Positions 1-11,947 of a stretch of DNA of 64,000 bases are shown here, piece after piece (positions within the stretch are counted from its first letter, which is position 1; the number at the start of each line of letters is the position of its first letter). The notes under the pieces are model-generated. The model made no database searches. It saw nothing but the letters and a program-made list of their open reading frames with translations, and was not told where the DNA came from. Source of the DNA: Tessaracoccus sp. SD287 (GTDB lineage: Bacteria > Actinomycetota > Actinomycetes > Propionibacteriales > Propionibacteriaceae). Made by a program: the position numbers and the translations under genes. Location of the stretch: contig NZ_JADIJQ010000015.1 of the NCBI RefSeq assembly GCF_017355265.1, positions 1 to 64,000 on the forward strand, in the 5' to 3' direction.

Positions 1-608
1 CACAGCAGGGGTCCGGTCCGCAGCGGGGACCCGGGCCACAGCGGGGACCCCAGTTGCCGCCGCCCTTGCTGCCCCCGCCCGGTTATGGGATGCCGCCGGG
101 CTACGGCACGTACGGCTACCGTCCACTGAAGCCCGAGCCGCCCAAGCCCAGCGCCAAGCGCAAGCTGGCCATCATCATCGTGCTGGCACTCACCGCCCTG
201 GCCTTCGTCGGCAGCATCATGACCCCGCTGGTCTACCCCGCCGGTCAGCCGTGGAGCGGTGGCATCTTCCTGTGGCAGTGGACGCCACACCTGTTGACCG
301 ACCAGACCGAGTTCACCGTCGGCGCCTTCGTGTTCTTCTTCATCACCACCATCGGCTCGGCCGTCGGGGCGCTGCTGGCCTCGGCCGGGGTGATGGGCAG
401 GATGCCGACCATCGTCTGGCTCGTCGTGGTCGGTCTGAACCTGCTGGTGGCCCTGTTCATGTTGTTGATCGTGGCCGTGGCGGGCGCCGACGAGAGCCTG
501 TCGGTGGGGCCGGCGCTGTGGCTCAACATGGCTGGCATGGCCGGGGTGGGCGTTGCGCTGGGCACTGCGCGGCACCGCGCCGTGTGGATGCGCGAGTCCA
601 CGGTGTAG
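1..608 (+). CDS. Pro/Gln-rich N-terminus plus four-helix membrane protein (5' partial)
   Basis: The reading frame is open to the left edge of the window, so the true start lies upstream; a TTG at 54 is only the first possible start inside the window. The visible N-terminal part is low-complexity (Gln, Gly, Pro, then a Pro/Tyr/Gly run), which suggests a flexible cytoplasmic tail. After a Lys/Arg-rich junction come about four hydrophobic segments, the first beginning LAIIIVLALTALAF and later ones around VFFFITTIGSAVGALL and LVVVGLNLLVALFMLL. I do not recognise a family. Actinobacteria carry many small Pro-rich-tail membrane proteins of unknown role. No neighbour suggests a function; the next gene is a separate exporter on the same strand. 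Confidence 0.6.
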   Translation, partial: QQGSGPQRGPGPQRGPQLPPPLLPPPGYGMPPGYGTYGYRPLKPEPPKPSAKRKLAIIIVLALTALAFVGSIMTPLVYPAGQPWSGGIFLWQWTPHLLTDQTEFTVGAFVFFFITTIGSAVGALLASAGVMGRMPTIVWLVVVGLNLLVALFMLLIVAVAGADESLSVGPALWLNMAGMAGVGVALGTARHRAVWMRESTV

Positions 609-791
609 GAATCCTTTGACCGCTCCACGGCAAGGGAATCCACGGTGCGGGTGGTATTTCTCACACTGGCGCTGGTGACGTAGAATTACCCCGCGCCCCT
701 GCCCGTTGGCCGCTGTGCGAGACGGGTCGTCCAATGTCAGGTCCCGCGCCCGGGACCTCGGCCGGACGGCGTGAACCCCAGGAGTTCACCC

Positions 792-2033
792 ATGCACCAG
801 ACCGCGACGCCCACCCTGCACCGCGGTGACCAGATGACGTCCAATCGGCGCCTGTTCACCATCATCACCCTCGGACTGCTGACGGCCCTCGGCCCGTTCA
901 CGATCGACCTGTACCTGCCCGCATTCCCCGCCATCAAGGCCAACATGGGCATCAACGACGCCCAGGTGCAGGTGACCCTGTCGGCCACCGTGCTTGGCTT
1001 CGCGCTCGGCCAGTTGCTGGTCGGCCCGCTCAGCGACCGGCTCGGACGCAAGTGGCCGCTGCTGGCGATGACCAGCGTGCACGTGATCAGTTCGGTGCTG
1101 GTGGCGATCGCCCCGAACGTGGAGTTCCTGACGGTGATGCGCGCCCTGCAGGGCATCGGTGCTGCCGGTGGTGCCGTGGTCGCGATGGCCATGGCCCGTG
1201 ACCTGTTCAGCGGCCGACGGCTGATCAAGATGCTGTCGAACCTGGCCCTGATCAACGGGCTGGCGCCGATCATCGCGCCGCTGGTCGGGTCGTGGCTGGT
1301 GACCATCATCGACTGGCGTGGCGTGTTCTGGGTGCTGGCCTGTTACGGCGCCCTGATCGTGCTGTTGGTGGCGACGCTGATCGTCGAGAGCCGTCCGCCC
1401 GCCGAACGCACCGTCGGTGGTGTCTCTGCCGTGTTCGCGGCCTACCGCAGGGTGCTGGGCGATCGGACCTATATCGGGGTGGCGCTGGTCGCGGCCTTCT
1501 CGTTCGGCGGCCTGTTCAGCTACGTCGCCAGTTCCTCGGTGCTGCTGCAGGAGGGCTTCGGCCTGTCCCCGCAGGGCTTCGGTGCCGTCTTCGCGATCTG
1601 CTCGGTGGGGGTCTTCGTCGGCGTCCAGCTGGGGAGTCGACTGGCCGCCAAGGTGGGTCCGCAGTGGATCCTGGTGGCCGGCACCACGCTGATGGTCGCG
1701 GCCGCCACGTCGTTCCTGCTGCTGCACAGCGCCTTCGACGGCTACGTCGCGCTGGTGCCGGCCATGTTCGCGTTCACCACCGGTTTCGGCGCCTGCATGC
1801 CCAGCGCGCAGGTGCTGGCGCTGCAGAACCACCGCGCGGACTCCGGTGTCGCGGCGTCCCTCATGGGTGCGACCAACATGCTGGTGGCAGCCACGGTCGG
1901 CCCGGTGCTGGGCGGTTTCGACATGACCAGCCCGGTGCCGTTGGGCACCGCGATGCTGATCTGCGCCCTGTTGGCGACGGTGATGCTGTGGACGGTCGTG
2001 CGGCCCCGATCGGTGCAGGTCAACCTCGACTGA
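792..2033 (+). CDS. Bcr/CflA-family MFS multidrug exporter
   Basis: This is a 12-helix major facilitator superfamily exporter of the Bcr/CflA drug-resistance type, acting in the cytoplasmic membrane as a proton-drug antiporter. The family signature FTIDLYLPAFPAI lies in helix 1. The MFS motif A, GPLSDRLGRKWPLL, sits in the loop between helices 2 and 3, and the rest is evenly hydrophobic with the usual length of about 400 residues. I chose the ATG at 792 because AGGAG at 780-784 is correctly spaced before it; a GTG at 771 is also in frame. The substrate cannot be read from sequence. It appears to be a single-gene unit. Confidence 0.85.
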   Translation: MHQTATPTLHRGDQMTSNRRLFTIITLGLLTALGPFTIDLYLPAFPAIKANMGINDAQVQVTLSATVLGFALGQLLVGPLSDRLGRKWPLLAMTSVHVISSVLVAIAPNVEFLTVMRALQGIGAAGGAVVAMAMARDLFSGRRLIKMLSNLALINGLAPIIAPLVGSWLVTIIDWRGVFWVLACYGALIVLLVATLIVESRPPAERTVGGVSAVFAAYRRVLGDRTYIGVALVAAFSFGGLFSYVASSSVLLQEGFGLSPQGFGAVFAICSVGVFVGVQLGSRLAAKVGPQWILVAGTTLMVAAATSFLLLHSAFDGYVALVPAMFAFTTGFGACMPSAQVLALQNHRADSGVAASLMGATNMLVAATVGPVLGGFDMTSPVPLGTAMLICALLATVMLWTVVRPRSVQVNLD

Positions 2034-2227
2034 CCGCTCAAAGCTCGTGCTGAACGCTTCAGCGTCGAGCCGTGCCTCCGACCCCTCAAGGTCCAATTTG
2101 GCGAGCCGACCCGCATACGCGGTTGGAAGCCCCGCCCGACTGGACAACCGCTGGCAATCGGACCGTTACGACACGCGCCACCGGCGGGCTTGTAGACGGA
2201 ATGCTTCAGGGTAACTAAGTCCAGGGC

Positions 2228-2962
2228 CTACCAGACGTAGAGGACGACCTTCGTGGGGGTGCCCTTTGGCACATATACGGACGCCCGAGCCTGCACCTTC
2301 TCACCAGAAGCGAGACGCTCCGGCGCAGAGGTGAAGTCCAGCCACGCTCCACCCACGATCTTTCCCGACCCATCGAGCAGCACGACGGCTGAGCTGATCT
2401 CGGCTGTCTTCACGTCTCCCGATGCAGCGATAACCGCCGTCACGTCGTAAGTCTTTGCAGTGGGATGCAGGTCGTACTCCGAGCGCTTGAAATTGGACTT
2501 TTCGACGGTCACCAAGGACTTGAACTCGCCGCTCTGCAACGTACCCTGTCTTGTGATCGCCACCGTCGCCTTGGCGGGAATGCCAGTCAAGTGAGCACCA
2601 CCTGCTCCGCCGACGTAATACCATGTCCCTCCGGGACCGATAGGGGGCAAGGCAGTGTCGTAAGATCCAACGATCACCCCGTCCTTGTCCAACGCCTTCC
2701 AAGAGGCAGTCGCGCCAACACGTGTCTGGTTCGCCGGATTAGTGAACTTAACGACGAAACGCGCGAATGGGTCATCGTTGAAGTAGGTGTGAACGACCTC
2801 CGCTTGGAGGGTAGGGCCGTCTGTCGTACGCGTGGGTGTATTCGGCGCGATCGACGGTGACGTGGGTGCGGGCTCGGACGCGGGTGTGCTGCTGGCACCC
2901 CCACCGCATCCCGCTAGCACCAGAAGTACCGCAAAGATCAGAGAGAGGTACGGGCGTCGCAT
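2228..2962 (-). CDS. Secreted lipoprotein of unknown function
   Basis: The N-terminus is a lipoprotein signal: MRRPY, a hydrophobic run and the lipobox LAGC with the lipidated Cys at residue 19. A Ser/Pro/Thr-rich linker follows, then a domain of about 190 residues rich in beta-type alternation (for example VVHTYFNDDPFARFVVKFTN). The domain reads like two related extracellular beta-sandwich halves, similar in style to FxLYD-type domains, but no family is certain. I prefer the ATG at 2962 because AAGGAAG lies just upstream; an ATG at 2980 gives six more residues without a ribosome site. Base composition is less G+C-rich than in housekeeping genes here, consistent with an accessory gene. Confidence 0.65.
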   Translation of the reverse strand: MRRPYLSLIFAVLLVLAGCGGGASSTPASEPAPTSPSIAPNTPTRTTDGPTLQAEVVHTYFNDDPFARFVVKFTNPANQTRVGATASWKALDKDGVIVGSYDTALPPIGPGGTWYYVGGAGGAHLTGIPAKATVAITRQGTLQSGEFKSLVTVEKSNFKRSEYDLHPTAKTYDVTAVIAASGDVKTAEISSAVVLLDGSGKIVGGAWLDFTSAPERLASGEKVQARASVYVPKGTPTKVVLYVW

Positions 2963-3568
2963 TATCTTCCTTCGGTTCATCCGGCTTGCATCGGCGCGGT
3001 CGCGGTTGGTTCGTTCAGGTCGGTCGTCCTTTGTCCCACGAACGGCTGCGAGAGCCAGCAGGGGGCTCTACAGAGTCCTGGGATCGCTGACCGTTCCTCG
3101 ACTTTCGACTAGGAGCAGCGTAGTGCGTCCACTTGTGCTTCATCAGCCGCTGACTTGTGGAGTGAGATCTAACTCGCAATGACACATCGGTGCACCGTCA
3201 CAGAAATTGCTCACAGCACCCGGGCCGACGTGCCCGAAGCTAGTCCAATTACTGCGGACGCTCGTCGTCTTCGCAGACGCGGGATACTGCCACCACCGAG
3301 AAGAGTCAGCCCCAAGTTCTCGTCACGATGTTCGTGACGAGACGCACCCAGGATTGCACCCCTTCATTGAGCAGGTGTCCCATCCCATGTACCGCCAGCG
3401 CAGGGCGCAAGCTTGAGGCACTTCATCCCCATGTTTAGGACGGCGCGCCTCTGGGCGCCGGATGGACCTCCCGGGGAAATGGCGCGGCCTCGACGCGAGT
3501 TTCTGACCGTAGGCGACGTCGAGTGTCCGACTCAGTCGACCAAGGTCACGGACCGCCCGTGTCCCTGC
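2963..3568. other. Gene-free intergenic segment with a strong hairpin
   Basis: About 600 bases without a convincing gene. Short frames exist on both strands but none has a good start, ribosome site or recognisable family. A hairpin with 10-base arms TCTCGTCACG / CGTGACGAGA and a five-base loop lies at 3318-3342. A plus-strand frame at 3207-3416 contains the string FADAGYCHHREE, which faintly recalls the ADAGY motif of some DDE transposases, so a decayed insertion sequence is possible but unproven. Confidence 0.4.
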
Positions 3569-4744
3569 TCAGTTGCGCGGCGGGTGTCCGCCCTCGGCGC
3601 TGATCCTGGCGTTGAGTTCGGTCAGGAACAGGTCCTCGTCGAAGTCGAACGGCACCTCACGGCCCAGCCAGGACGACAGCAGCATCGCACTGGACAGCCG
3701 CAGCGCGTCCAGACCCCCGGACGCCGTGACCAGCACGGGTTCACCGAACAGGATGGCGCGGGCGAAATTCGTCAGCACCGCGGCGTGGTCCACGCCGAAG
3801 TCCGAGGTGCCCTCGACCACCTCGGTGGTGCTCAGCCCCGACCAGTCCACCGTGCCCTGGACGATCTGCTGCAGGGTGGCCGCGTCCATGGATTCGGAGA
3901 ACTCGGCCATCGGGCGGTCCAGCCGGGTGATGGTCGCGTGCCGGCTGTCCTGCACGACGACCTTGCCCTGGTCGCACTGGATCTCGAGGCGGTCGACGCC
4001 CAGCATGTCGTGGGTGGCCGTGACGAAGGTGCCGCTGCCCCGCTGGCCGTAGTCCAGGACGGCAGTGACGTCGTCCTCGACCGTGATGTCGTGGCCGAAG
4101 CCGTAGCGGATCTTCGCGAACACTGACTCCGGGGCGCCGCACAGCCACTGCCACAGGTCGATCTGGTGGGCGGCCTGGTTGATCAGCACGCCGCCACCCT
4201 CCCCGGCCCAGGTGCCCCGCCACGGGGAGCTGTCGAAGTAGCTCTGCGGCCGAAACCAGTTGGTGATCGTCCAGTTCACCCGGCGGACCTGGCCCAGTTC
4301 GCCGCTGGACAGCACCTGCTTGAGGCGGATGAACAGCGGGTTGGCGCGCTGGTTGTACAGGACGCCGAGCCGGACGTCGGGATGCGTCTGGGCCACCTGG
4401 AGCATCCGGCGCACCTGCTGCGGGTAGACCCCCACGGGCTTCTCGAGCAGCACGTGCACGCCGCGTTCGATGCCGGCGACGGCCAGGTCGGGATGCAGGT
4501 AGTGCGGGACCGTGGTGACGATGGCGTCGACAGTTCCGCTGTCCATCATCTCGATCGGGTCAGTGAAGAACGGGACGTCGCCGAAGCGGTCCTGGACGGC
4601 CGCTCGGGAGGCGGCGCTGCGGCCGCTGAAGGCGCCGACGGTCATGTTCGGCACGTGGCCGTCGGCGACCAGCGTGGCGTAGAAGGCACCCTGACCGCGG
4701 GCGCCGACGATGCCGAGTCGAACGGGTCCGGTGTGGTCGGTCAT
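3569..4744 (-). CDS. Gfo/Idh/MocA-family NAD(P)-dependent oxidoreductase
   Basis: This is a soluble sugar- or polyol-type dehydrogenase. The N-terminal Rossmann fold shows LGIVGARGQGAFY at residues 10-22, and the family's conserved EKPVG, whose Lys is catalytic, is at 101-105. The C-terminal alpha/beta domain includes NQAAHQIDLWQW, carrying the usual Asp/His pair near the active site. The length of 391 residues is normal. GGAAGG precedes the ATG at good spacing. The substrate (inositol, glucose derivative or other) cannot be assigned, because there is no sugar transport or catabolic operon next to it. It stands alone on the minus strand. Confidence 0.85.
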   Translation of the reverse strand: MTDHTGPVRLGIVGARGQGAFYATLVADGHVPNMTVGAFSGRSAASRAAVQDRFGDVPFFTDPIEMMDSGTVDAIVTTVPHYLHPDLAVAGIERGVHVLLEKPVGVYPQQVRRMLQVAQTHPDVRLGVLYNQRANPLFIRLKQVLSSGELGQVRRVNWTITNWFRPQSYFDSSPWRGTWAGEGGGVLINQAAHQIDLWQWLCGAPESVFAKIRYGFGHDITVEDDVTAVLDYGQRGSGTFVTATHDMLGVDRLEIQCDQGKVVVQDSRHATITRLDRPMAEFSESMDAATLQQIVQGTVDWSGLSTTEVVEGTSDFGVDHAAVLTNFARAILFGEPVLVTASGGLDALRLSSAMLLSSWLGREVPFDFDEDLFLTELNARISAEGGHPPRN

Positions 4745-4836
4745 GGTGGTCCTTCCGGGGTGCTGGCGCTGCCGCCGAAGCCGTGGCGGATGCCCTCACG
4801 CTAGCGTCCGGGTCGGGTTGGAGGGATGGTGGGCCG

Positions 4837-5235
4837 TCACTCGGCGAGGAAGACCAGTCCCTCGTGGGTGACGGTGTAGCAGAACAGGTTCCCGGTCGCG
4901 TCGTAGAAGCTCAGGTCGACGTTGCCCAGATCGGTGAAGTCCACGCGGTCACCGCGCGGGTCTCGATGGAGGACGAAGAGCCCACCCAGATCGGCCAGGG
5001 CCGAGATGATCGCCCGGTCATAGCCATAGCGGTGCAGGACAGCCCGTGGCTCTGCCCGGTCGTAACCCGGACGTGCACTCACGCCCTCAAACCGATCAGG
5101 CGCCAGGTACTGGAGCCGCTCTGTGAGCGGATGACCGGCGTCGTCGTGGAAGACCATCTCGACCACGGCCATGCGCAGACGCAGACTGTGTAGCAGGGCC
5201 AACTGCTGGCCGGGGGTTTCGGTGTCGATGGCCAT
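4837..5235 (-). CDS. Uncharacterised 132-residue protein
   Basis: I do not recognise the family. The protein is soluble, without a signal peptide or membrane segment, and acidic. It alternates short strands and helices, for example LRLRMAVVEMVFHDDAG near the N-terminus and YDATGNLFCYTVTHEGLVFLAE at the end, suggesting a small alpha/beta fold. It is transcribed divergently from the GIY-YIG-like multidomain gene that starts 110 bases away, so the two could share a promoter region. No ribosome site is obvious before the ATG at 5235. Small orphans beside nuclease or helicase genes are sometimes immunity or accessory proteins, but nothing here demonstrates that. Confidence 0.55.
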   Translation of the reverse strand: MAIDTETPGQQLALLHSLRLRMAVVEMVFHDDAGHPLTERLQYLAPDRFEGVSARPGYDRAEPRAVLHRYGYDRAIISALADLGGLFVLHRDPRGDRVDFTDLGNVDLSFYDATGNLFCYTVTHEGLVFLAE

Positions 5236-5345
5236 TCGGAGGTCGACGCTTATGGAGTAAGGCTAGGAGAGAAAAACCGCGGGACCCCGGTGCCGCGGGT
5301 CGAAATCATGGCCGAGGACCCAGGACTGGGACTACATTCACGGGC

Positions 5346-7226
5346 ATGGCGAACTGGGAACCTTTGCGCATATTGCTCGCTGATAGTCGGTCGCCAGTGA
5401 CGCTGTCCTGGCAGGAGCTGGACGAATTGGTCGGCGGAATGCCAACCTCGGCGACCCACCACGTTGCGTACTGGTCCGGTGATCGGTCCCAGTGGGCCGG
5501 GTTCAGAGCGAAGGCGACGGTCGGAAGCTCCGTCACCTTCACACGCGCCGTTGATACGCGTTCGTCCTCGAACGGCCACACAACGCAGACCCATGTGGGA
5601 GCCGACATCATTCTGGTCAGTTGCGCGAAGCGCAAGGGCGACGAACCAGCCCCTGCCAAGGATCTGTACACCTCAGCGCTGTTCCGCGAGGCGCGCGCCT
5701 ACGCCGAGCGCTCCGGTGCGCCTTGGTACATCCTGTCGGCCAAGCACGGCTTGATGGAGGTCAACGACGTGATTGCGCCGTACGACATGAGAATGCAGGA
5801 CCAGTCCGCTGCCTACCGCCGGGAGTGGGGAGCTAACGTCATGGAACGACTGCACGAACTCGTCGGGCCAGTAGAGGGGATGACCATCGAGATCCATGCG
5901 GGGGCCGACTACGTCGCCCCCATCAGGAGTTTGTTGGTCATTCGCGGCGCCACTGTCGTGGAGCCGCTTGCCGGCCTGCAGCAGGGCCGGCGCCTCGCGT
6001 GGTATTGCCGCGACCGGTCAGACGCTGCCCCGGCAGCTGCACCTTTGTCACAGAACAGGAACGACGAGGTCGATATTGTCGAGCTGGCTGAGGCACTCAC
6101 CAACAAGCACAATCGCGTGACCTTGTCAGACTTTGTGGCGAGCAAAGACCCACGGATGGACTCCCCCGGCCTGTACAGCTGGTGGATGGATGCGACAGGC
6201 GCGGCCGAGGTGAGCCATGGTCTCGGTCTCGAGGTAAGGCCGGGTTTGGTTTACGTCGGCCAGGCTGGCGCCCACCATTCAGAGGCGCAGAAGGCCTCCA
6301 CCAACACCTTGTGGAAACGGATTGTGAAGATGCACTGCGGCCGACGGCAGGAGTTCTCGACGCTGCGCCGGACGCTTGGTTCGACCTTGGCGGAGGCTCG
6401 CGGCGAGTCGGGCATCGACGAATCGGCGCTCACCAGCTGGATGCTGGTTCATCTCCAGATCATTGCTCTCCCAGTCGCCGACGCGGCCACTCTCCGCGCC
6501 GTTGAAACTGAAATTCTCAGTCGGCTCGATCCACCGTTCAACCTCCACGAAGTTGAACGCACCGAACTGCGGTCACGACTGATGGCACTGCGCAAGAAAT
6601 ACCACCGTGGTCATCCCCGACACCCTCAACAACTCGCGGAAAAGAGTCCCCCAACGGCGGCCGCCCACTACGTGGACGCGCCGGATCCTTCGATTGACGA
6701 ATTGATCACGCTGGTTTCTGACACCACACGTGGGATGACACCCGCGGAGTTCATCGCCGCCAAGACCCAAGACATGGATTCACCGGGAATCAACGCCTGG
6801 TTCGTGGACCAGCCCGGAGCTGACGAACTGAGCCTTGGTCTGGGCCTGCGTCTTGGACCCGGACTGGTCTACGCCGGACAGGCAGGCGCTGCCCGAGCAG
6901 ACGGACAGAAGTCGTCCAACACCCTGTGGCTGCGGGTCACGACGATGCATCTCGGAGCGCGGCGCGACCTGTCCACTCTTCGCGAGAGCCTCGCGGCACT
7001 GCTGACGGAGGCCCACGACCAGCCCATCAGCGAAGGCGACCTCAGCCAATGGATGCATGAGCATCTGCGACTCATCGCCGTCCCGGTGGCCGATTCAGTC
7101 ACCCTGCGTGATGTCCAAGGTGCGGTGGTGCAGAAGTTGGACCCCCCGCTCAACCTCCGCGGTGTGACAACAACCGCGGCACGTCAGCGCCTCGCGGAGC
7201 TACGGAAGAAGCACCGGCCCAGCTGA
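5346..7226 (+). CDS. DUF7662-DUF6884-GIY-YIG-GIY-YIG multidomain protein
   Basis: A 626-residue soluble protein with four parts. Residues 5-68 resemble DUF7662 (SWQELDELVGG, then HHVAYWSGD). Residues 86-220 match DUF6884: ILVSCAKRKGDEPAPAKDLY, then WYILSAKHGLM and APYDMRM. Residues 260-420 and 464-624 are a tandem duplication of a GIY-YIG-like nuclease domain. Copy 1 keeps GLY (275-277), VYVG (302-305), a Glu-containing helix (VETEIL, 386-391) and LDPPFN. Copy 2 has GIN (481-483) and VYAG, but Gln591 and Ala593 stand where copy 1 has Glu387 and Glu389, so it looks catalytically dead. The gene lies in a stretch poorer in G+C, with a PLD-helicase gene nearby, so a role in DNA restriction or defence is a reasonable inference. 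The substrate is unknown. Confidence 0.65.
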   Translation: MANWEPLRILLADSRSPVTLSWQELDELVGGMPTSATHHVAYWSGDRSQWAGFRAKATVGSSVTFTRAVDTRSSSNGHTTQTHVGADIILVSCAKRKGDEPAPAKDLYTSALFREARAYAERSGAPWYILSAKHGLMEVNDVIAPYDMRMQDQSAAYRREWGANVMERLHELVGPVEGMTIEIHAGADYVAPIRSLLVIRGATVVEPLAGLQQGRRLAWYCRDRSDAAPAAAPLSQNRNDEVDIVELAEALTNKHNRVTLSDFVASKDPRMDSPGLYSWWMDATGAAEVSHGLGLEVRPGLVYVGQAGAHHSEAQKASTNTLWKRIVKMHCGRRQEFSTLRRTLGSTLAEARGESGIDESALTSWMLVHLQIIALPVADAATLRAVETEILSRLDPPFNLHEVERTELRSRLMALRKKYHRGHPRHPQQLAEKSPPTAAAHYVDAPDPSIDELITLVSDTTRGMTPAEFIAAKTQDMDSPGINAWFVDQPGADELSLGLGLRLGPGLVYAGQAGAARADGQKSSNTLWLRVTTMHLGARRDLSTLRESLAALLTEAHDQPISEGDLSQWMHEHLRLIAVPVADSVTLRDVQGAVVQKLDPPLNLRGVTTTAARQRLAELRKKHRPS

Positions 7227-7264: not shown

Positions 7265-8152
7265 TCAGTTCACCGCCTCCATCGCCTCGTCGACGTCGTC
7301 GTGAAGGAACTGGAAACCGTTGTCCAGCAGCACCTTCGGCAACGCCTGCTGGCTCGCCAGCAGTGCATCGTCGACCATCTGGCCGGTGAACAGCAGCTTG
7401 GCCGCCGGCAGGGGCAACGGTAGGAACGCGGGACGGTGCAGAGCCACCGCGAACGCCTTGGTGAAGTCGACGTTGCGCACCGGGTTCGGGGCGGTCAGGT
7501 TCACCGGCCCAGAGATGTCGTCGTGGGTCAACAGGAACTCACACGCGCGGACGTAGTCGTCGACGCTGATCCAACTGACGTACTGGTTGCCGTCGCCGAT
7601 GCGGCCACCGGCACCCAACTGGTAGAGCAGTCGCTGCTTGCCGAGGATGCCGCCGCTTCGGGTCAGCACGTGGCCGGTGCGGACTTTCACCACGCGGACG
7701 TGGTCGGGTGCCTGGTCTGCGGCCAGCTCCCAGTCGCGCACCAGTTCGGCGAGGTAGCCGGTGCCGTTCGTGGATGCTTCGGTGAGGCGTTCCGACCCCC
7801 TGTTGCCGTAATAGCCGATGGCTGAACCGGACAGGAACACTCTGCAGTTCGGGGCCTCGGCCAGGGCGTTGGTAATCGTCTGGGTGCTGGTGAGTCGCGA
7901 CGCCCGCATGGCTCGCTTGTGGGACTCGGTCCAGCGGGAGTCGGCGATGCCGGCGCCGGCGAAGTTCACCACCGCGTCGACGTCGGTGAGTCCGGGGGCC
8001 GCGATGGTGCGGCTAGCCGGGTCGAAGCGGCGCTCGTCGGCTCCGTGAGGTTCACTGCGGACGAGTCGGATGACCTGATGGCCGTTCTGGCGCAGGTGTT
8101 GGGTAAGGGCAGTTCCGAGGAGTCCGGTGGCACCGGCGATGGCGACGCGCAT
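7265..8152 (-). CDS. TIGR01777-family epimerase (SDR, YfcH-like)
   Basis: An atypical short-chain dehydrogenase/reductase of the TIGR01777 family, related to E. coli YfcH and plant cell-division inhibitor SulA homologues. The NAD(P)-binding motif is GATGLLGTAL at residues 7-16. The family's SGSAIGYYG motif is present, and the C-terminus ends in the DUF1731-type segment LPKVLLDNGFQF. The length of 295 residues is normal. The substrate is unknown for the whole family. It is a housekeeping-type gene standing between two accessory genes. It is transcribed divergently from the helicase gene and convergently with the GIY-YIG gene. Confidence 0.85.
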   Translation of the reverse strand: MRVAIAGATGLLGTALTQHLRQNGHQVIRLVRSEPHGADERRFDPASRTIAAPGLTDVDAVVNFAGAGIADSRWTESHKRAMRASRLTSTQTITNALAEAPNCRVFLSGSAIGYYGNRGSERLTEASTNGTGYLAELVRDWELAADQAPDHVRVVKVRTGHVLTRSGGILGKQRLLYQLGAGGRIGDGNQYVSWISVDDYVRACEFLLTHDDISGPVNLTAPNPVRNVDFTKAFAVALHRPAFLPLPLPAAKLLFTGQMVDDALLASQQALPKVLLDNGFQFLHDDVDEAMEAVN

Positions 8153-8268
8153 GAAGCTAGTTTGTCAGGTACGCCATGGGGCCGGCGTACTCCCTGACAA
8201 AGGCACTCGTCTCGGTCCGACATGTGCCCGCCTCAAGATTCGTCGGGGCGTTATGCCAGTCTGTTCCC

Positions 8269-11200
8269 ATGACCCTCGAGGACCCACATTCTCTACCCGA
8301 AGGCGCTTATGACGCCGTGGTCACCAGCGAAATCGAGGCTCGACTGCGCAAGACGCTCCTGCAGCGGGAAATCACAAAGATCGATGAGGCACACCTACCT
8401 GACTTGCTTTCCCGCCATGTACAGGGCAGTCTGCGTCGTTACCTGACCGGATTGAAGGCTGAGGATCGTGTTGCCGCGGTGAACTCGCTGTTGGAAAACA
8501 TCGACGCGGCCGGGGACATGATTCCAGGTCCACCGAGCAAACTCATCTCTCTGCGTCCTGAGCCTGGACCAAGTGTTCAAGCTCGTCACGGTGTTCACCC
8601 GGTCATGCCCCTCAGCGAGGTGGCGCTCCTGACCAATACCGGTTCGGAACCGAACTTCGGCCACGAGATCCGCGGAGAGTTGGCGACCGCTGACGAGGTG
8701 TATCTCATCTGCGCGTTCATCAAGTGGTACGGAATCCGGACCCTCGAGCGTCAGATGCGGGAACTGGCGGAGCGCAACGCCACCTTCAAGGTGCTGACTT
8801 CCACGTACCTTGGCTCAACCGAGCGTCGCGCCCTCGACCGACTCGTCCGGGAGTTCGGCGCCGAGGTCCGCATCAGCTACGAAATCGAGCGCACCCGACT
8901 GCACGCGAAGGCCTGGCTCTTCCACCGAGACAGCCAGTTCCACACCGCATATGTCGGCTCCTCCAATCTGACGAGTACTGCACTCCTTGACGGCGTCGAG
9001 TGGAACGTTCGGCTCAGCCGCTCAGTGACTCCCAGCCTGCTCCGAAAGTTTGGCGCAACGTTCGAGACCTACTGGAACAGCGAGAATTTCGAGGAGTACC
9101 TCCCTGATCGCGATGGCGACCGGCTCGAAGCGGCCCTCGCCGAAGCCCGCGGCGGTGGCGCCGCTCACCGCGTGACGATCTCCCTATCGGGCCTAGAAGT
9201 ACGCCCCTACCCGCACCAGCGCTCCATCCTTGAGGCTCTCGAGGTCGAGCGGACGGTGCATGGCCACCATCGAAACCTTGTCGTCGCAGCGACGGGCACA
9301 GGCAAGACCGTCGTTGCGGCCTTGGATTACCGTCGGTTGTGCCACGGTGACCGCCGCCCCTCACTGCTCTTTGTAGCGCACCGCAAGGAGATCCTGGACC
9401 AAGCACGACGTACGTACCGTGAGGTGCTTAACGACCCAAACTTCGGCGAGCTGTACGTAGGCGGATCTCGCCCCGAGACATGGCGACACGTCTTCGCTTC
9501 CGTTCAGTCGCTGAGCGCTGCAGTCGTCGGTGGTATGCGTCCGGAGGCCTTCGAGATCGTCGTTATCGATGAGTTCCACCATGCTGCTTCATCGAGTTAC
9601 CAACAGCTGCTGACCCATCTGCAACCGAAGGAACTGCTCGGCCTCACTGCTACCCCTGAACGCACTGACGGCATCGATGTTCGCAAGTACTTTGACGGCA
9701 GGACCGCTGCTGAGATCCGCCTGTGGGACGCCCTTGAAGCCGAGTTGCTGGTGCCCTTCCACTACTTCGGTCTCAGCGATGGCACCGATCTCACGCAGGT
9801 GTCATGGCGAAGCGGACGCTACGACCCTGTCGAGCTCGAAAACCTCTACACAGCAAATACTGCCCGACTGCGTGTCGTCTTGAGTCAGCTGCAGGACAAA
9901 GTGCCTGACCTGACGGCCATGCGTGCGCTCGGGTTCTGCAGCGGTGTCAAGCACGCCCAGTTCATGTCTGATGCGTTCAACCAGGCGGGGATATCCGCAG
10001 CATGGGTGAGCGGAGCCACCGCTCCAATCGAGCGCGCCCAGACACTCCGAGACCTGACCGCTAGGAAGGTCAACATCGTCTTCAGCGCTGATGTCTTCAA
10101 CGAGGGGCTGGACCTACCGGACGTCGACACCGTCTTGTTCCTGCGTCCAACAGAGTCAGCCACGCTCTTCCTTCAGCAACTTGGGCGAGGATTGCGTCGC
10201 ACCAAGGACAAGGCAGTCCTTACAGTTCTGGACTTCGTGGGCAATCACCGCAAGGAGTACCGCTTCGATACGCGTCTGACAGCACTGACGGGAATCGCGC
10301 GCGGAACCCTCCGGGAGCACGTAGAGCGCGAGTTCCCGGAGCTGCCAGCCGGATCACAGCTGCTTCTCGACCGTCACACACAAGCCCAGATCCTCGAATC
10401 GCTGAAGCGCCAGATCACTACGCGTTGGGCAGAGACGGTGAAAACACTCAGGAACCTAGGCGACGTGACCCTTGCCCACTTCCTTGAGGCCAGCGATGTG
10501 CCGCTGAGCCAAGTGCTGAAGACGGACCGCAGCTGGACACAGCTACGCCGCGAAGCAGGGTTGCCAACCCCACCCGGTGGAGAACACGAGACACCGCTAC
10601 TCAAGCGCGTCGCTGCCTTCGCTCACGTGGAGGATGCTGAGCGCCTCTACAGGTACCGCGAGGTGCTCACCGGTTCCACGCCCTATGCGCACTTGTCCCC
10701 CACCGACCAGATCTGGGCTCGGATGGTTCTCTTCTCACTGTGGCCGAACCTGCCGTTCGACAATTACGAAACACCTCTGCAGATCATCCGCAGTGAGCAG
10801 GCCGTGGTCTCCGACATCCTCGACGTGATGCAACTAGGCGTTGACTCCGCCACCCATCTGCCGGAGCCGCTCTCCGCCGGATTGTCATGGCGACCGCTAC
10901 GGTCCCATATGAGGTACTCCCGTGAGGAACTATGTGCCGGTCTCGATTACGCCTCTCTAGACCGTAAACCTGCCAACATGCGCGAAGGAGTGTTCTACGC
11001 CGCAGACCTCGATACGGATGCGCTCCTGGTCACGGTCAATAAGGCTGAGCACGAGTTCAGTTCGACCACCATGTACGAGGATTACGCGATCAGCAGCGAG
11101 CTCTTCCATTGGGAAAGTCAGTCACGCACCACGGTGGCTTCGCCCACCGGGCAGCGATACATCAACCAACGCACCACTCGCAGCAACATCCTTATTTTCA

Positions 11201-11367
11201 TGCGCCCCCAGCGGTCATCCGAGCTGGGTAAGGGCGCCCCATACCTGCTCTTGGGGCACGCCGACTACGTGCAGCATGAAGGAGAGCGGCCGATCGCGAT
11301 TACGTGGCGTCTGCGGCGACAGATGTCACAGGACCAATTCGCGGTTGCTGCAGTCACAAGCATCTAG
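8269..11367 (+). CDS. PLD-nuclease/SF2 helicase/DUF3427 protein
   Basis: A 1032-residue protein joining three parts. Near residues 205-235 is a phospholipase-D-like nuclease site: HAK, then GSSNL about 17 residues later. A superfamily 2 helicase core follows: Walker A ATGTGKT near 345, the DEAH-type box VIDEFHH near 430, LTATPERTDG near 460 and motif VI QQLGRGLRR near 637. The last 350 residues match the DUF3427 region that follows this helicase type. The likely activity is ATP-driven DNA translocation coupled to cleavage; the family is often found near mobile and defence genes. I chose the ATG at 8269 because known members begin close to this point; an ATG at 8176 would add 31 unlikely residues. 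Base composition is poorer in G+C than in neighbouring core genes. Confidence 0.8.
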   Translation: MTLEDPHSLPEGAYDAVVTSEIEARLRKTLLQREITKIDEAHLPDLLSRHVQGSLRRYLTGLKAEDRVAAVNSLLENIDAAGDMIPGPPSKLISLRPEPGPSVQARHGVHPVMPLSEVALLTNTGSEPNFGHEIRGELATADEVYLICAFIKWYGIRTLERQMRELAERNATFKVLTSTYLGSTERRALDRLVREFGAEVRISYEIERTRLHAKAWLFHRDSQFHTAYVGSSNLTSTALLDGVEWNVRLSRSVTPSLLRKFGATFETYWNSENFEEYLPDRDGDRLEAALAEARGGGAAHRVTISLSGLEVRPYPHQRSILEALEVERTVHGHHRNLVVAATGTGKTVVAALDYRRLCHGDRRPSLLFVAHRKEILDQARRTYREVLNDPNFGELYVGGSRPETWRHVFASVQSLSAAVVGGMRPEAFEIVVIDEFHHAASSSYQQLLTHLQPKELLGLTATPERTDGIDVRKYFDGRTAAEIRLWDALEAELLVPFHYFGLSDGTDLTQVSWRSGRYDPVELENLYTANTARLRVVLSQLQDKVPDLTAMRALGFCSGVKHAQFMSDAFNQAGISAAWVSGATAPIERAQTLRDLTARKVNIVFSADVFNEGLDLPDVDTVLFLRPTESATLFLQQLGRGLRRTKDKAVLTVLDFVGNHRKEYRFDTRLTALTGIARGTLREHVEREFPELPAGSQLLLDRHTQAQILESLKRQITTRWAETVKTLRNLGDVTLAHFLEASDVPLSQVLKTDRSWTQLRREAGLPTPPGGEHETPLLKRVAAFAHVEDAERLYRYREVLTGSTPYAHLSPTDQIWARMVLFSLWPNLPFDNYETPLQIIRSEQAVVSDILDVMQLGVDSATHLPEPLSAGLSWRPLRSHMRYSREELCAGLDYASLDRKPANMREGVFYAADLDTDALLVTVNKAEHEFSSTTMYEDYAISSELFHWESQSRTTVASPTGQRYINQRTTRSNILIFMRPQRSSELGKGAPYLLLGHADYVQHEGERPIAITWRLRRQMSQDQFAVAAVTSI

Positions 11368-11485: not shown

Positions 11486-11947
11486 ATGGCCACCATCACC
11501 TCCATCCTGGACGTCCTCGCCGCATCCGTGACCCCAGCACTCGCCAACGCCGTCCCGGGCGCCGAACTACGCCAGCAGCGGCCGCAGGACGCCGAGTCCC
11601 TCGCCTGTCTCTACCTGCTCGGACTTTCTCCCACTGAGGCCACCCACCACCTGACTGCGCCCCGTCCCGGCCCGAGGAACCAACCCATCCCCGCGGCCAC
11701 CTCCACGGCCGAGGTCCTGTTCAGCTTCCACGGCACCCAGGCGCCGCAACTGCTCGAGTCGGTGCTCACCACGCTTCACCAGCAGCCCGTTGTCCAGGTC
11801 GGCGACCAGCCCGTCCCGGTGCGGCTGCAGCCGACATCCTGGGCTGATCTGTGCGCGATCTGGACCATGCTCGGTGAGCCACACTCGCCCTGCCTCGTCT
11901 ACCAGGTGGGGCCGTTCGACGTGGATACGACCATCGGTCCCGGCTGA
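11486..11947 (+). CDS. DUF4255 / Pvc16-like protein, orphan
   Basis: A 153-residue protein that follows the pattern of DUF4255, the N-terminal domain of Pvc16, a cap/tail-completion protein of extracellular contractile injection systems. Matching features are an N-terminal helix ITSILDVLAASVTPAL, then PGAELRQQRP, LYLLGLSPT, RNQPIP, LLESVLTTLHQQPVV, and the end segment SWADLCAIWTMLGEPHSPCL followed by VYQVGPFDVD. In the family the last part reads like a Leu-x3-Trp helix and a Tyr-Gln-Val strand. No sheath, tube, baseplate or ATPase gene of such a system is in the window, so this copy stands alone. It is shorter than typical members by perhaps 30 residues. The family assignment is by eye. Confidence 0.55.
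   Translation: MATITSILDVLAASVTPALANAVPGAELRQQRPQDAESLACLYLLGLSPTEATHHLTAPRPGPRNQPIPAATSTAEVLFSFHGTQAPQLLESVLTTLHQQPVVQVGDQPVPVRLQPTSWADLCAIWTMLGEPHSPCLVYQVGPFDVDTTIGPG

What the first reader, a model, noticed from the sequence alone, without database searches (positions are those of the whole stretch)
5346..7226. Tandem GIY-YIG domains with one predicted dead copy
Residues 260-420 and 464-624 are clearly duplicated. Copy 1 keeps GLY, VYVG and the Glu-bearing helix before LDPPFN. Copy 2 has GIN, and Gln591 and Ala593 replace Glu387 and Glu389. The chain also carries DUF7662 and DUF6884 parts. An active-inactive pair suggests one copy cuts and the other binds, inhibits or positions the substrate. 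I know of no described defence or repair system with this order.
Basis: partly seen in the sequence, partly recalled or inferred. Interest (0 to 1): 0.68.

Follow-up and report, generated by a model that had tools for sequence, protein, structure and literature searches.

The report
Single-chain cutting-plus-dead nuclease domain pair
This bacterial gene joins a probable DNA-damage or modified-base reader to two copies of the same DNA-cutting domain, one with an intact cutting site and one that has lost its two essential cutting residues but kept the rest, which suggests an enzyme that holds DNA with both copies and cuts with only one.

Summary
Window 5346-7226 (+) encodes 626 aa: DUF7662, DUF6884 (YaaA-like) and two GIY_YIG_2 domains (244-419, 450-624; about 45% identical). 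Copy 1 has the family's full catalytic set (Y277, Y303, R325, E387, N399). Copy 2 has lost exactly the general-base Tyr (N483) and the metal Glu (Q591), yet keeps 46 of 50 family-conserved positions. Corrections: only Glu387 matters; Glu389 is variable, so Ala593 is uninformative. The three-domain order DUF7662-DUF6884-GIY is widespread in Actinomycetota; only the tandem is new, and it was found in no other genome, plasmid or phage searched. Copy 2's model resembles R.Eco29kI and UvrC GIY-YIG structures; the Eco29kI crystals include the inactive mutant E142Q, the very change copy 2 carries naturally. A related DUF6884-GIY clade carries a single degenerate GIY. Best explanation: DUF6884 reads a lesion or modified base; copy 1 cuts; copy 2 is a DNA-holding dead partner, making a built-in pseudo-dimer that should nick. 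The gene is accessory (absent at this locus in the one congener held), and some relatives abut type IV restriction or helicase genes. Function is inferred; nothing was assayed.

The parts
5346..7226 (+). Whole gene, 626 aa: DUF7662 - DUF6884 - GIY-YIG copy 1 - GIY-YIG copy 2
   Evidence: start MAxW conserved in relatives
5355..5549 (+). DUF7662 domain (aa 4-68), role unknown
   Evidence: Pfam PF24698 E 4.2e-20
5607..6005 (+). DUF6884 domain (aa 88-220), YaaA-like, motifs C93-AKR-K97 and L130-SAKH-G135 intact; probable lesion / modified-base reader
   Evidence: Pfam PF21818 E 4.6e-46; structural match to E. coli YaaA 5CAJ, Z 9.5, 4.9 A over 141 residues; motifs as described in PMC11701544
6075..6602 (+). 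GIY-YIG copy 1 (aa 244-419), complete catalytic set Y277, Y303, R325, H330, E387, N399
6174..6176 (+). Y277 codon (GIY tyrosine, copy 1)
   Evidence: Y in 57/59 relatives, F in 2
6504..6506 (+). E387 codon (metal-binding Glu, copy 1)
   Evidence: E in 49/59 relatives; 12 residues before N399, as E142-N154 in R.Eco29kI (PMC1952068)
6693..7217 (+). GIY-YIG copy 2 (aa 450-624), predicted catalytically dead; fold and likely DNA-contact residues kept
6792..6794 (+). N483 codon: replaces the GIY tyrosine
7116..7118 (+). Q591 codon: replaces the metal-binding Glu (equivalent of the R.Eco29kI E142Q inactive variant)
8176..11367 (+). PLD - ResIII helicase - DUF3427 protein (PADLOC mREase_IV); neighbour, possible functional company but not a demonstrated partner
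   Evidence: abuts a DUF6884-GIY gene in two mycobacteria but is kept without it in the congener G001

Best explanation
The protein is a base-lesion- or modified-base-directed DNA endonuclease of the actinobacterial DUF7662-DUF6884-GIY_YIG_2 family in which the nuclease domain was duplicated and one copy was inactivated. The DUF6884 (YaaA-like) domain finds an odd or damaged base, probably by flipping it; copy 1 makes the cut with its GIY tyrosine and E387-bound metal; copy 2, which has lost only the general-base Tyr and the metal Glu, still grips DNA and stands in for the second subunit of a GIY-YIG dimer. The predicted product is a nick in one strand near the marked base rather than a double-strand break. 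The likely biological use is restriction of foreign DNA with unusual bases (type IV-like), less likely housekeeping repair. Shown here by computation: the duplication, the intact and broken sites, conservation of the copy 2 scaffold, the predicted fold. Inferred: base reading, intramolecular pseudo-dimer, nicking, defence.
For: Copy 1 carries the signature YYRHEN found in 47 of 59 relatives; copy 2 is NYRHQN, unique among them. Copy 2 matches the family at 46/50 conserved columns but 42/124 others (p 5e-13), and two of its four departures are the two catalytic residues (the others are L->V and T->S). dN/dS between the copies is 0.49/1.87 (dS near saturation). In R.Eco29kI, Y49A and E142A give 0% cleavage but bind DNA (Kd 49 and 45 nM vs 16), whereas H108 and N154 matter mostly for binding (PMC1952068); copy 2 keeps H535 and N603. 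Copy 2 model pLDDT 96.4; all 10 listed structural matches are GIY-YIG enzymes: Eco29kI (Z 7.2, 4.3 A, 130 residues), UvrC (Z 7.2, 3.0 A, 92 residues), Hpy188I. The DUF6884 region matches YaaA, a DNA-binding protein (Z 9.5); Pfam curators report that DUF6884 member YfjM was found among interactors of abasic and RNA-base lesions and modelled base flipping (PMC11701544). DUF6884 and GIY also occur as two overlapping genes in both orders (L092 Kribbella, L100 Chloroflexi), so they work together. DUF6884 is also fused to an endonuclease III-like part in the same genome (L002, PDB 1p59 E 1.3e-4). Accessory character: the gene is missing at the matching place in congener G001, has GC3 0.74 where four of the seven neighbours have 0.86-0.93, and single-copy relatives abut GmrSD, a mREase_IV helicase or a PDC-S53 helicase.
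Against: The tandem exists in one draft genome only (90.7% complete, 66 contigs), so co-evolution of the two copies cannot be tested. No assay; substrate unknown. The domain arrangement in the full model is not determined (pTM 0.46), so a pseudo-dimer is not shown. Structural Z of about 7 is moderate and Foldseek alone gave no significant hit. Defence context has no matched control. The helicase neighbour is conserved without this gene in G001.
Confidence: 0.45

Rival explanations
1. Copy 2 is a duplicated domain on its way to decay: one copy suffices, and the loss of its active site is neutral drift in one strain, without a new function.
For: Tandem seen in one genome only; several single-copy relatives are frameshifted or split (L028, L072, L075, L080, L083), so the gene family decays often; long end branches for both copies (0.58, 0.83).
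Against: Copy 2 has diverged to about 45% identity from copy 1 yet keeps 92% of conserved positions, keeps an open frame, and dN/dS is about 0.26; copy 1 itself departs from the family at 5 of the same 50 columns, so copy 2 is no more eroded than copy 1. Random decay would not spare the scaffold and hit both catalytic residues (p 0.005).
Confidence: 0.2
2. Autoinhibition: the dead copy acts as a brake on copy 1 until DUF6884 finds its target.
For: Inactive domain retained next to an active one in one chain; a toxic nuclease would profit from a brake (inference).
Against: 47 relatives with a live single GIY domain manage without any dead copy; no structural evidence for copy 1-copy 2 contact (pTM 0.46).
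Confidence: 0.1
3. DNA-repair incision enzyme (UvrC-like) acting on the host's own lesions rather than a defence enzyme; the copy 1 / copy 2 division of labour may be as in the best explanation.
For: DUF6884 member YfjM binds abasic and RNA-base lesions (PMC11701544); a second DUF6884 protein in this genome is fused to an endonuclease III-like part; UvrC GIY-YIG is among the nearest structures.
Against: Patchy distribution (12 of 57 relatives and 52 of 391 genomes of the order match any part), absence from the congener, plasmid homologues in Rhodococcus, neighbours such as GmrSD, HmaA/DrmD-like helicases, type I RM: an accessory pattern unlike core repair.
Confidence: 0.2
4. Two complete, independent functions: copy 2 is still catalytic with a non-canonical site.
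For: R.Hpy188I shows that GIY-YIG sites vary: it lacks the YIG tyrosine (PMC2630997); copy 2 keeps Y509, R530, N603 and D589 near Q591.
Against: Hpy188I departs at the YIG tyrosine, not at the GIY tyrosine or the Glu; loss of either of these two kills Eco29kI (PMC1952068), and Eco29kI E142Q is titled an inactive variant in the PDB. D589 is also present beside the live Glu in relatives such as L020.
Confidence: 0.05

Closest known systems
DUF7662-DUF6884-GIY_YIG_2 single-copy proteins of Actinomycetota (e.g. Rhodococcus plasmid WP_245207851.1, Mumia, Nocardioides)
   Same: Same three domains in the same order, about 40-53% identity over the shared part, copy 1 equivalent with YYRHEN signature
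   Different: One nuclease domain, not two; no dead copy beside a live one
R.Eco29kI (GIY-YIG type II restriction enzyme, PDB 3MX1, 3MX4, 3NIC)
   Same: Same fold; same catalytic set and Glu-Asn spacing of 12; its dead mutants E142Q and Y49A/F mirror copy 2
   Different: Single GIY domain with sequence-specific recognition; no DUF6884; sequence identity 14-15%
UvrC GIY-YIG domain (PDB 1YCZ, 1YD6)
   Same: Same fold, incision near a lesion
   Different: UvrC pairs it with a different second nuclease (general knowledge); here the second domain is a dead copy of the first
XPF-ERCC1 and MUS81-EME1 (general knowledge, not searched)
   Same: Active nuclease paired with a dead paralogous domain that binds DNA and fixes which strand is cut
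   Different: Different nuclease fold, two separate chains, eukaryotic; analogy of mechanism only
wH-GIY-YIG modification-dependent (type IV) nucleases Ahi29725I and Apa233I (PMC11037411)
   Same: A base-modification reader fused to a GIY-YIG nuclease
   Different: Reader is a winged helix sensing N6-methyladenine, not DUF6884; one nuclease domain
YaaA / DpdC (DUF328)
   Same: DUF6884 shares the YaaA fold (Z 9.5) and matches DpdC models weakly (E 2e-8)
   Different: DpdC converts dPreQ0 to dADG in the dpd system (PMC12839542); only one TGT-family gene is found in this genome

Membership tests
GIY-YIG nuclease superfamily, copy 1 | Match to a GIY-YIG family model | tested here: met
   PF20815 E 1.5e-22 for the whole protein, best stretch 275-418
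GIY-YIG nuclease superfamily, copy 1 | Catalytic set GIY-Tyr, YIG-Tyr, Arg, Glu, Asn | tested here: met
   Y277, Y303, R325, E387, N399; same in 47 of 59 relatives
GIY-YIG nuclease superfamily, copy 2 | Fold | tested here: met
   Model pLDDT 96.4; all listed matches are GIY-YIG enzymes, Z up to 7.2; Z is moderate and Foldseek alone was not significant; PF20815 match over cut-off
GIY-YIG nuclease superfamily, copy 2 | Catalytic GIY tyrosine and metal-binding Glu | tested here: not met
   N483 and Q591; copy 2 is a member by fold and descent, not an expected enzyme
DUF6884 (YaaA-like) | Profile match and CxxxK / LSAxxG motifs | tested here: met
   PF21818 E 4.6e-46; CAKRK at 93-97 and LSAKHG at 130-135
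DUF6884 (YaaA-like) | Binds lesions / flips bases | not testable with these tools
   Only literature on the relative YfjM (PMC11701544)
Type IV (modification-dependent) restriction | Cuts modified, not unmodified, DNA | not testable with these tools
   Needs an assay
Type IV (modification-dependent) restriction | Lies among defence genes | tested here: inconclusive
   Window neighbour matches mREase_IV, some relatives abut GmrSD or helicases, but no matched control and the neighbour is independent of this gene in G001
Dpd (7-deazaguanine) system | DpdA (TGT-like) partner beside the housekeeping TGT | tested here: not met
   Only one TGT-family gene in the genome (about 91% complete), and TGT matches occur in all 14 control genomes
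Active/dead pseudo-dimer nuclease (XPF-ERCC1-like) | Live and dead homologous domains packed together on DNA | tested here: inconclusive
   Live and dead domains present; packing not determined, pTM 0.46

The most novel reading that the evidence does not exclude
A single-chain active/dead GIY-YIG pair steered by a YaaA-like base reader: a modified-base-directed nickase in which the dead copy of the nuclease replaces the second subunit, the GIY-YIG counterpart of XPF-ERCC1, used in genome defence.
Probability: 0.25. Interest if true: 0.65.

Novelty: new variant of a known kind. Interest (0 to 1): 0.45.

Why it matters
DUF6884 nucleases are widespread in Actinomycetota and uncharacterised. A natural copy carrying the same Glu-to-Gln change that crystallographers use to kill R.Eco29kI, beside a live copy in one chain, gives a direct handle on how the nuclease domains pair on DNA and whether they nick or break it. 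It also points to DUF6884 as a general base-reading module that bacteria couple to different DNA-incising enzymes (GIY-YIG and endonuclease III-like), which would open a group of modification- or lesion-directed defence or repair enzymes to testing.

Tried and rejected
A four-domain system recurring elsewhere: rejected, no second tandem in samples of the order, two families, class and phylum, in 80 genome loci, plasmids, phages or viral contigs. Importance of Glu389/Ala593: rejected, the column is variable. Copy 2 brought in from a distant GIY lineage: not favoured; both copies lie in the same 27-row clade and are sisters in the best tree, but support is only 79/90. A second GIY remnant beside the Rhodococcus plasmid gene, suggested by a long match: checked and absent. 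The DUF3427 helicase as obligate partner: rejected, kept without this gene in G001. Phage homologues: only the DUF6884 part matches; the tandem GIY part matches none. Foldseek on the whole model and on copy 2 gave no significant hit; the second-look aligner did find GIY-YIG entries. PDB sequence search found nothing for the protein or the GIY profile. First genome-contig scan with the single protein found nothing; the alignment did. A full annotation of the rest of the window was not done.

Full report
OBSERVATION. The ORF at 5346-7226 (+) is real, starts at a conserved MAxW and runs 626 codons. Pfam reads DUF7662 (4-68), DUF6884 (88-220) and GIY_YIG_2 in two stretches. The two halves of the C-terminal part align over 244-419 and 450-623 with BLOSUM62 score 405; 500 shuffles gave 31.6 +/- 5.3, maximum 55. 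Copy 2 alone passes the GIY_YIG_2 cut-off.

CATALYTIC SITES. I aligned 59 GIY domains from relatives with the two window copies. The family's catalytic columns are Y277, Y303, R325, H330, E387 and N399 in copy 1 numbering. 47 relatives and copy 1 read YYRHEN; copy 2 reads NYRHQN. The Glu-Asn spacing of 12 equals E142-N154 of R.Eco29kI, whose active site is Y49, Y76, R104, H108, E142, N154 (PMC1952068). Y49A and E142A there give no cleavage but still bind DNA; H108F and N154L are the ones that mainly hurt binding. So copy 2 has lost the two cutting residues and kept the gripping ones. (The His is 5 residues after the Arg here and 4 in Eco29kI, so its equivalence is tentative.)

IS COPY 2 MAINTAINED? 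At columns conserved in at least 80% of relatives copy 2 agrees in 46 of 50, copy 1 in 45 of 50; elsewhere copy 2 agrees in 42 of 124 (Fisher p 5e-13). Two of its four departures are Y277N and E387Q; the others are L251V and T363S. The chance that both essential residues fall among four random departures is 0.005. NG86 gives dN 0.49, dS 1.87 between copies (dS is near saturation). This looks like a kept, inactivated domain rather than a decaying one, within the limit of one sequence.

FOLD. AlphaFold2 on the whole protein with 37 rows: mean pLDDT 84.4, pTM 0.46; both copies show the same order of elements, but the domain arrangement is not fixed. Copy 2 alone with 42 rows: pLDDT 96.4, pTM 0.91. 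Foldseek found nothing significant. The second-look aligner listed ten entries for copy 2, all GIY-YIG enzymes: Eco29kI 3MX4 (inactive E142Q variant, Z 7.2, 4.3 A, 130 residues), UvrC 1YD6 (Z 7.2, 3.0 A, 92 residues), Hpy188I (Z 2.8). In the full model DUF6884 matched E. coli YaaA 5CAJ (Z 9.5, 4.9 A, 141 residues).

RELATIVES. The order DUF7662-DUF6884-GIY with one GIY domain is a common actinobacterial protein of about 440 aa, including three Rhodococcus plasmids. No other protein with two full GIY_YIG_2 domains was found in any search: order (391 genomes), phylum (396), family (198), class by Pfam model (394), a second family of the order (341; these sets overlap), 80 genome-contig loci, plasmids, phages and viral contigs. 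In the best tree the two copies are sisters with weak support (79/90) inside a well supported clade of 27, so the duplication probably happened in this lineage, a good while ago or with fast change. A separate well supported clade (11 rows) has a single GIY domain that has lost Y303 and R325 in all and E387 in nine: a degenerate GIY tied to DUF6884 is retained there on its own, an independent precedent for a non-cutting role.

WHAT DUF6884 BRINGS. Pfam curators describe DUF6884 as a YaaA relative with CxxxK and LSAxxG motifs, a charged cleft, a member (YfjM) found among interactors of abasic and RNA-base lesions, and a model that flips a base (PMC11701544). Both motifs are intact here. DUF6884 and GIY also occur as two overlapping genes, DUF6884 first in Kribbella (L092) and GIY first in a Chloroflexi genome (L100). 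A second DUF6884 protein in this genome (L002) ends in an endonuclease III-like part with the Cys pattern C-x6-C-x2-C-x5-C. The shared theme is a base reader joined to a DNA-incising enzyme.

CONTEXT. In the congener G001 the gene next to the SDR gene (window 7265-8152) resembles window 54-608, judged by reading only, and none of the window genes from 771 to 7226 has a match in that region; the PLD-helicase-DUF3427 gene (8176-11367) is kept nearby. The GIY gene has GC3 0.74 and the helicase 0.71, while four of the six other neighbours have 0.86-0.93. So this is an accessory gene in a variable segment. In two mycobacteria the same helicase type abuts the DUF6884-GIY gene; GmrSD abuts it in L099; a PDC-S53 helicase lies 25 bp upstream in L069. 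PADLOC lists DUF6884 itself as candidate PDC-M57A. I had no matched control for neighbour content, so defence is favoured, not shown.

MECHANISM. Shown: duplication, one complete and one broken site, constraint on copy 2, predicted fold. Inferred: DUF6884 locates an abnormal base; copy 1 cuts; copy 2 holds DNA as a built-in second half of a GIY-YIG dimer; the result is a nick. The nearest mechanistic analogy (general knowledge) is XPF-ERCC1. Autoinhibition, drift, housekeeping repair and residual activity of copy 2 are treated as rivals.

VERDICT. New variant of a known kind; interest 0.45.

Noticed in passing
L002 580-2292 (own genome contig C9, around 21.6-22.0 kb): A second DUF6884 protein in the same genome: DUF7669 - DUF6884 - C-terminal endonuclease III-like part with an iron-sulfur-type Cys pattern; L093 has a similar fusion.
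   Followed up: partly
L003, L033, L034, L011, L012, L037-L039, L088-L090: A clade of DUF6884 proteins whose only GIY domain is degenerate (YIG Tyr and Arg lost in all, Glu lost in nine of eleven).
   Followed up: partly
window 8176-11367: PLD - ResIII - DUF3427 helicase (mREase_IV model); abuts DUF6884-GIY genes in two mycobacteria and lies near a DUF7662-DUF6884 gene in L091.
   Followed up: partly
L092 7716-9064; L100 7989-9472: Split versions: DUF6884 and GIY as two overlapping genes, in opposite orders.
   Followed up: partly
L028, L072, L075, L080, L083: DUF6884-GIY genes broken by frameshift or stop; the family is lost often.
   Followed up: no
window 11543-11947: Small ORF with a Pvc16_N Pfam match, E 1.5e-8, right after the helicase gene.
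   Followed up: no
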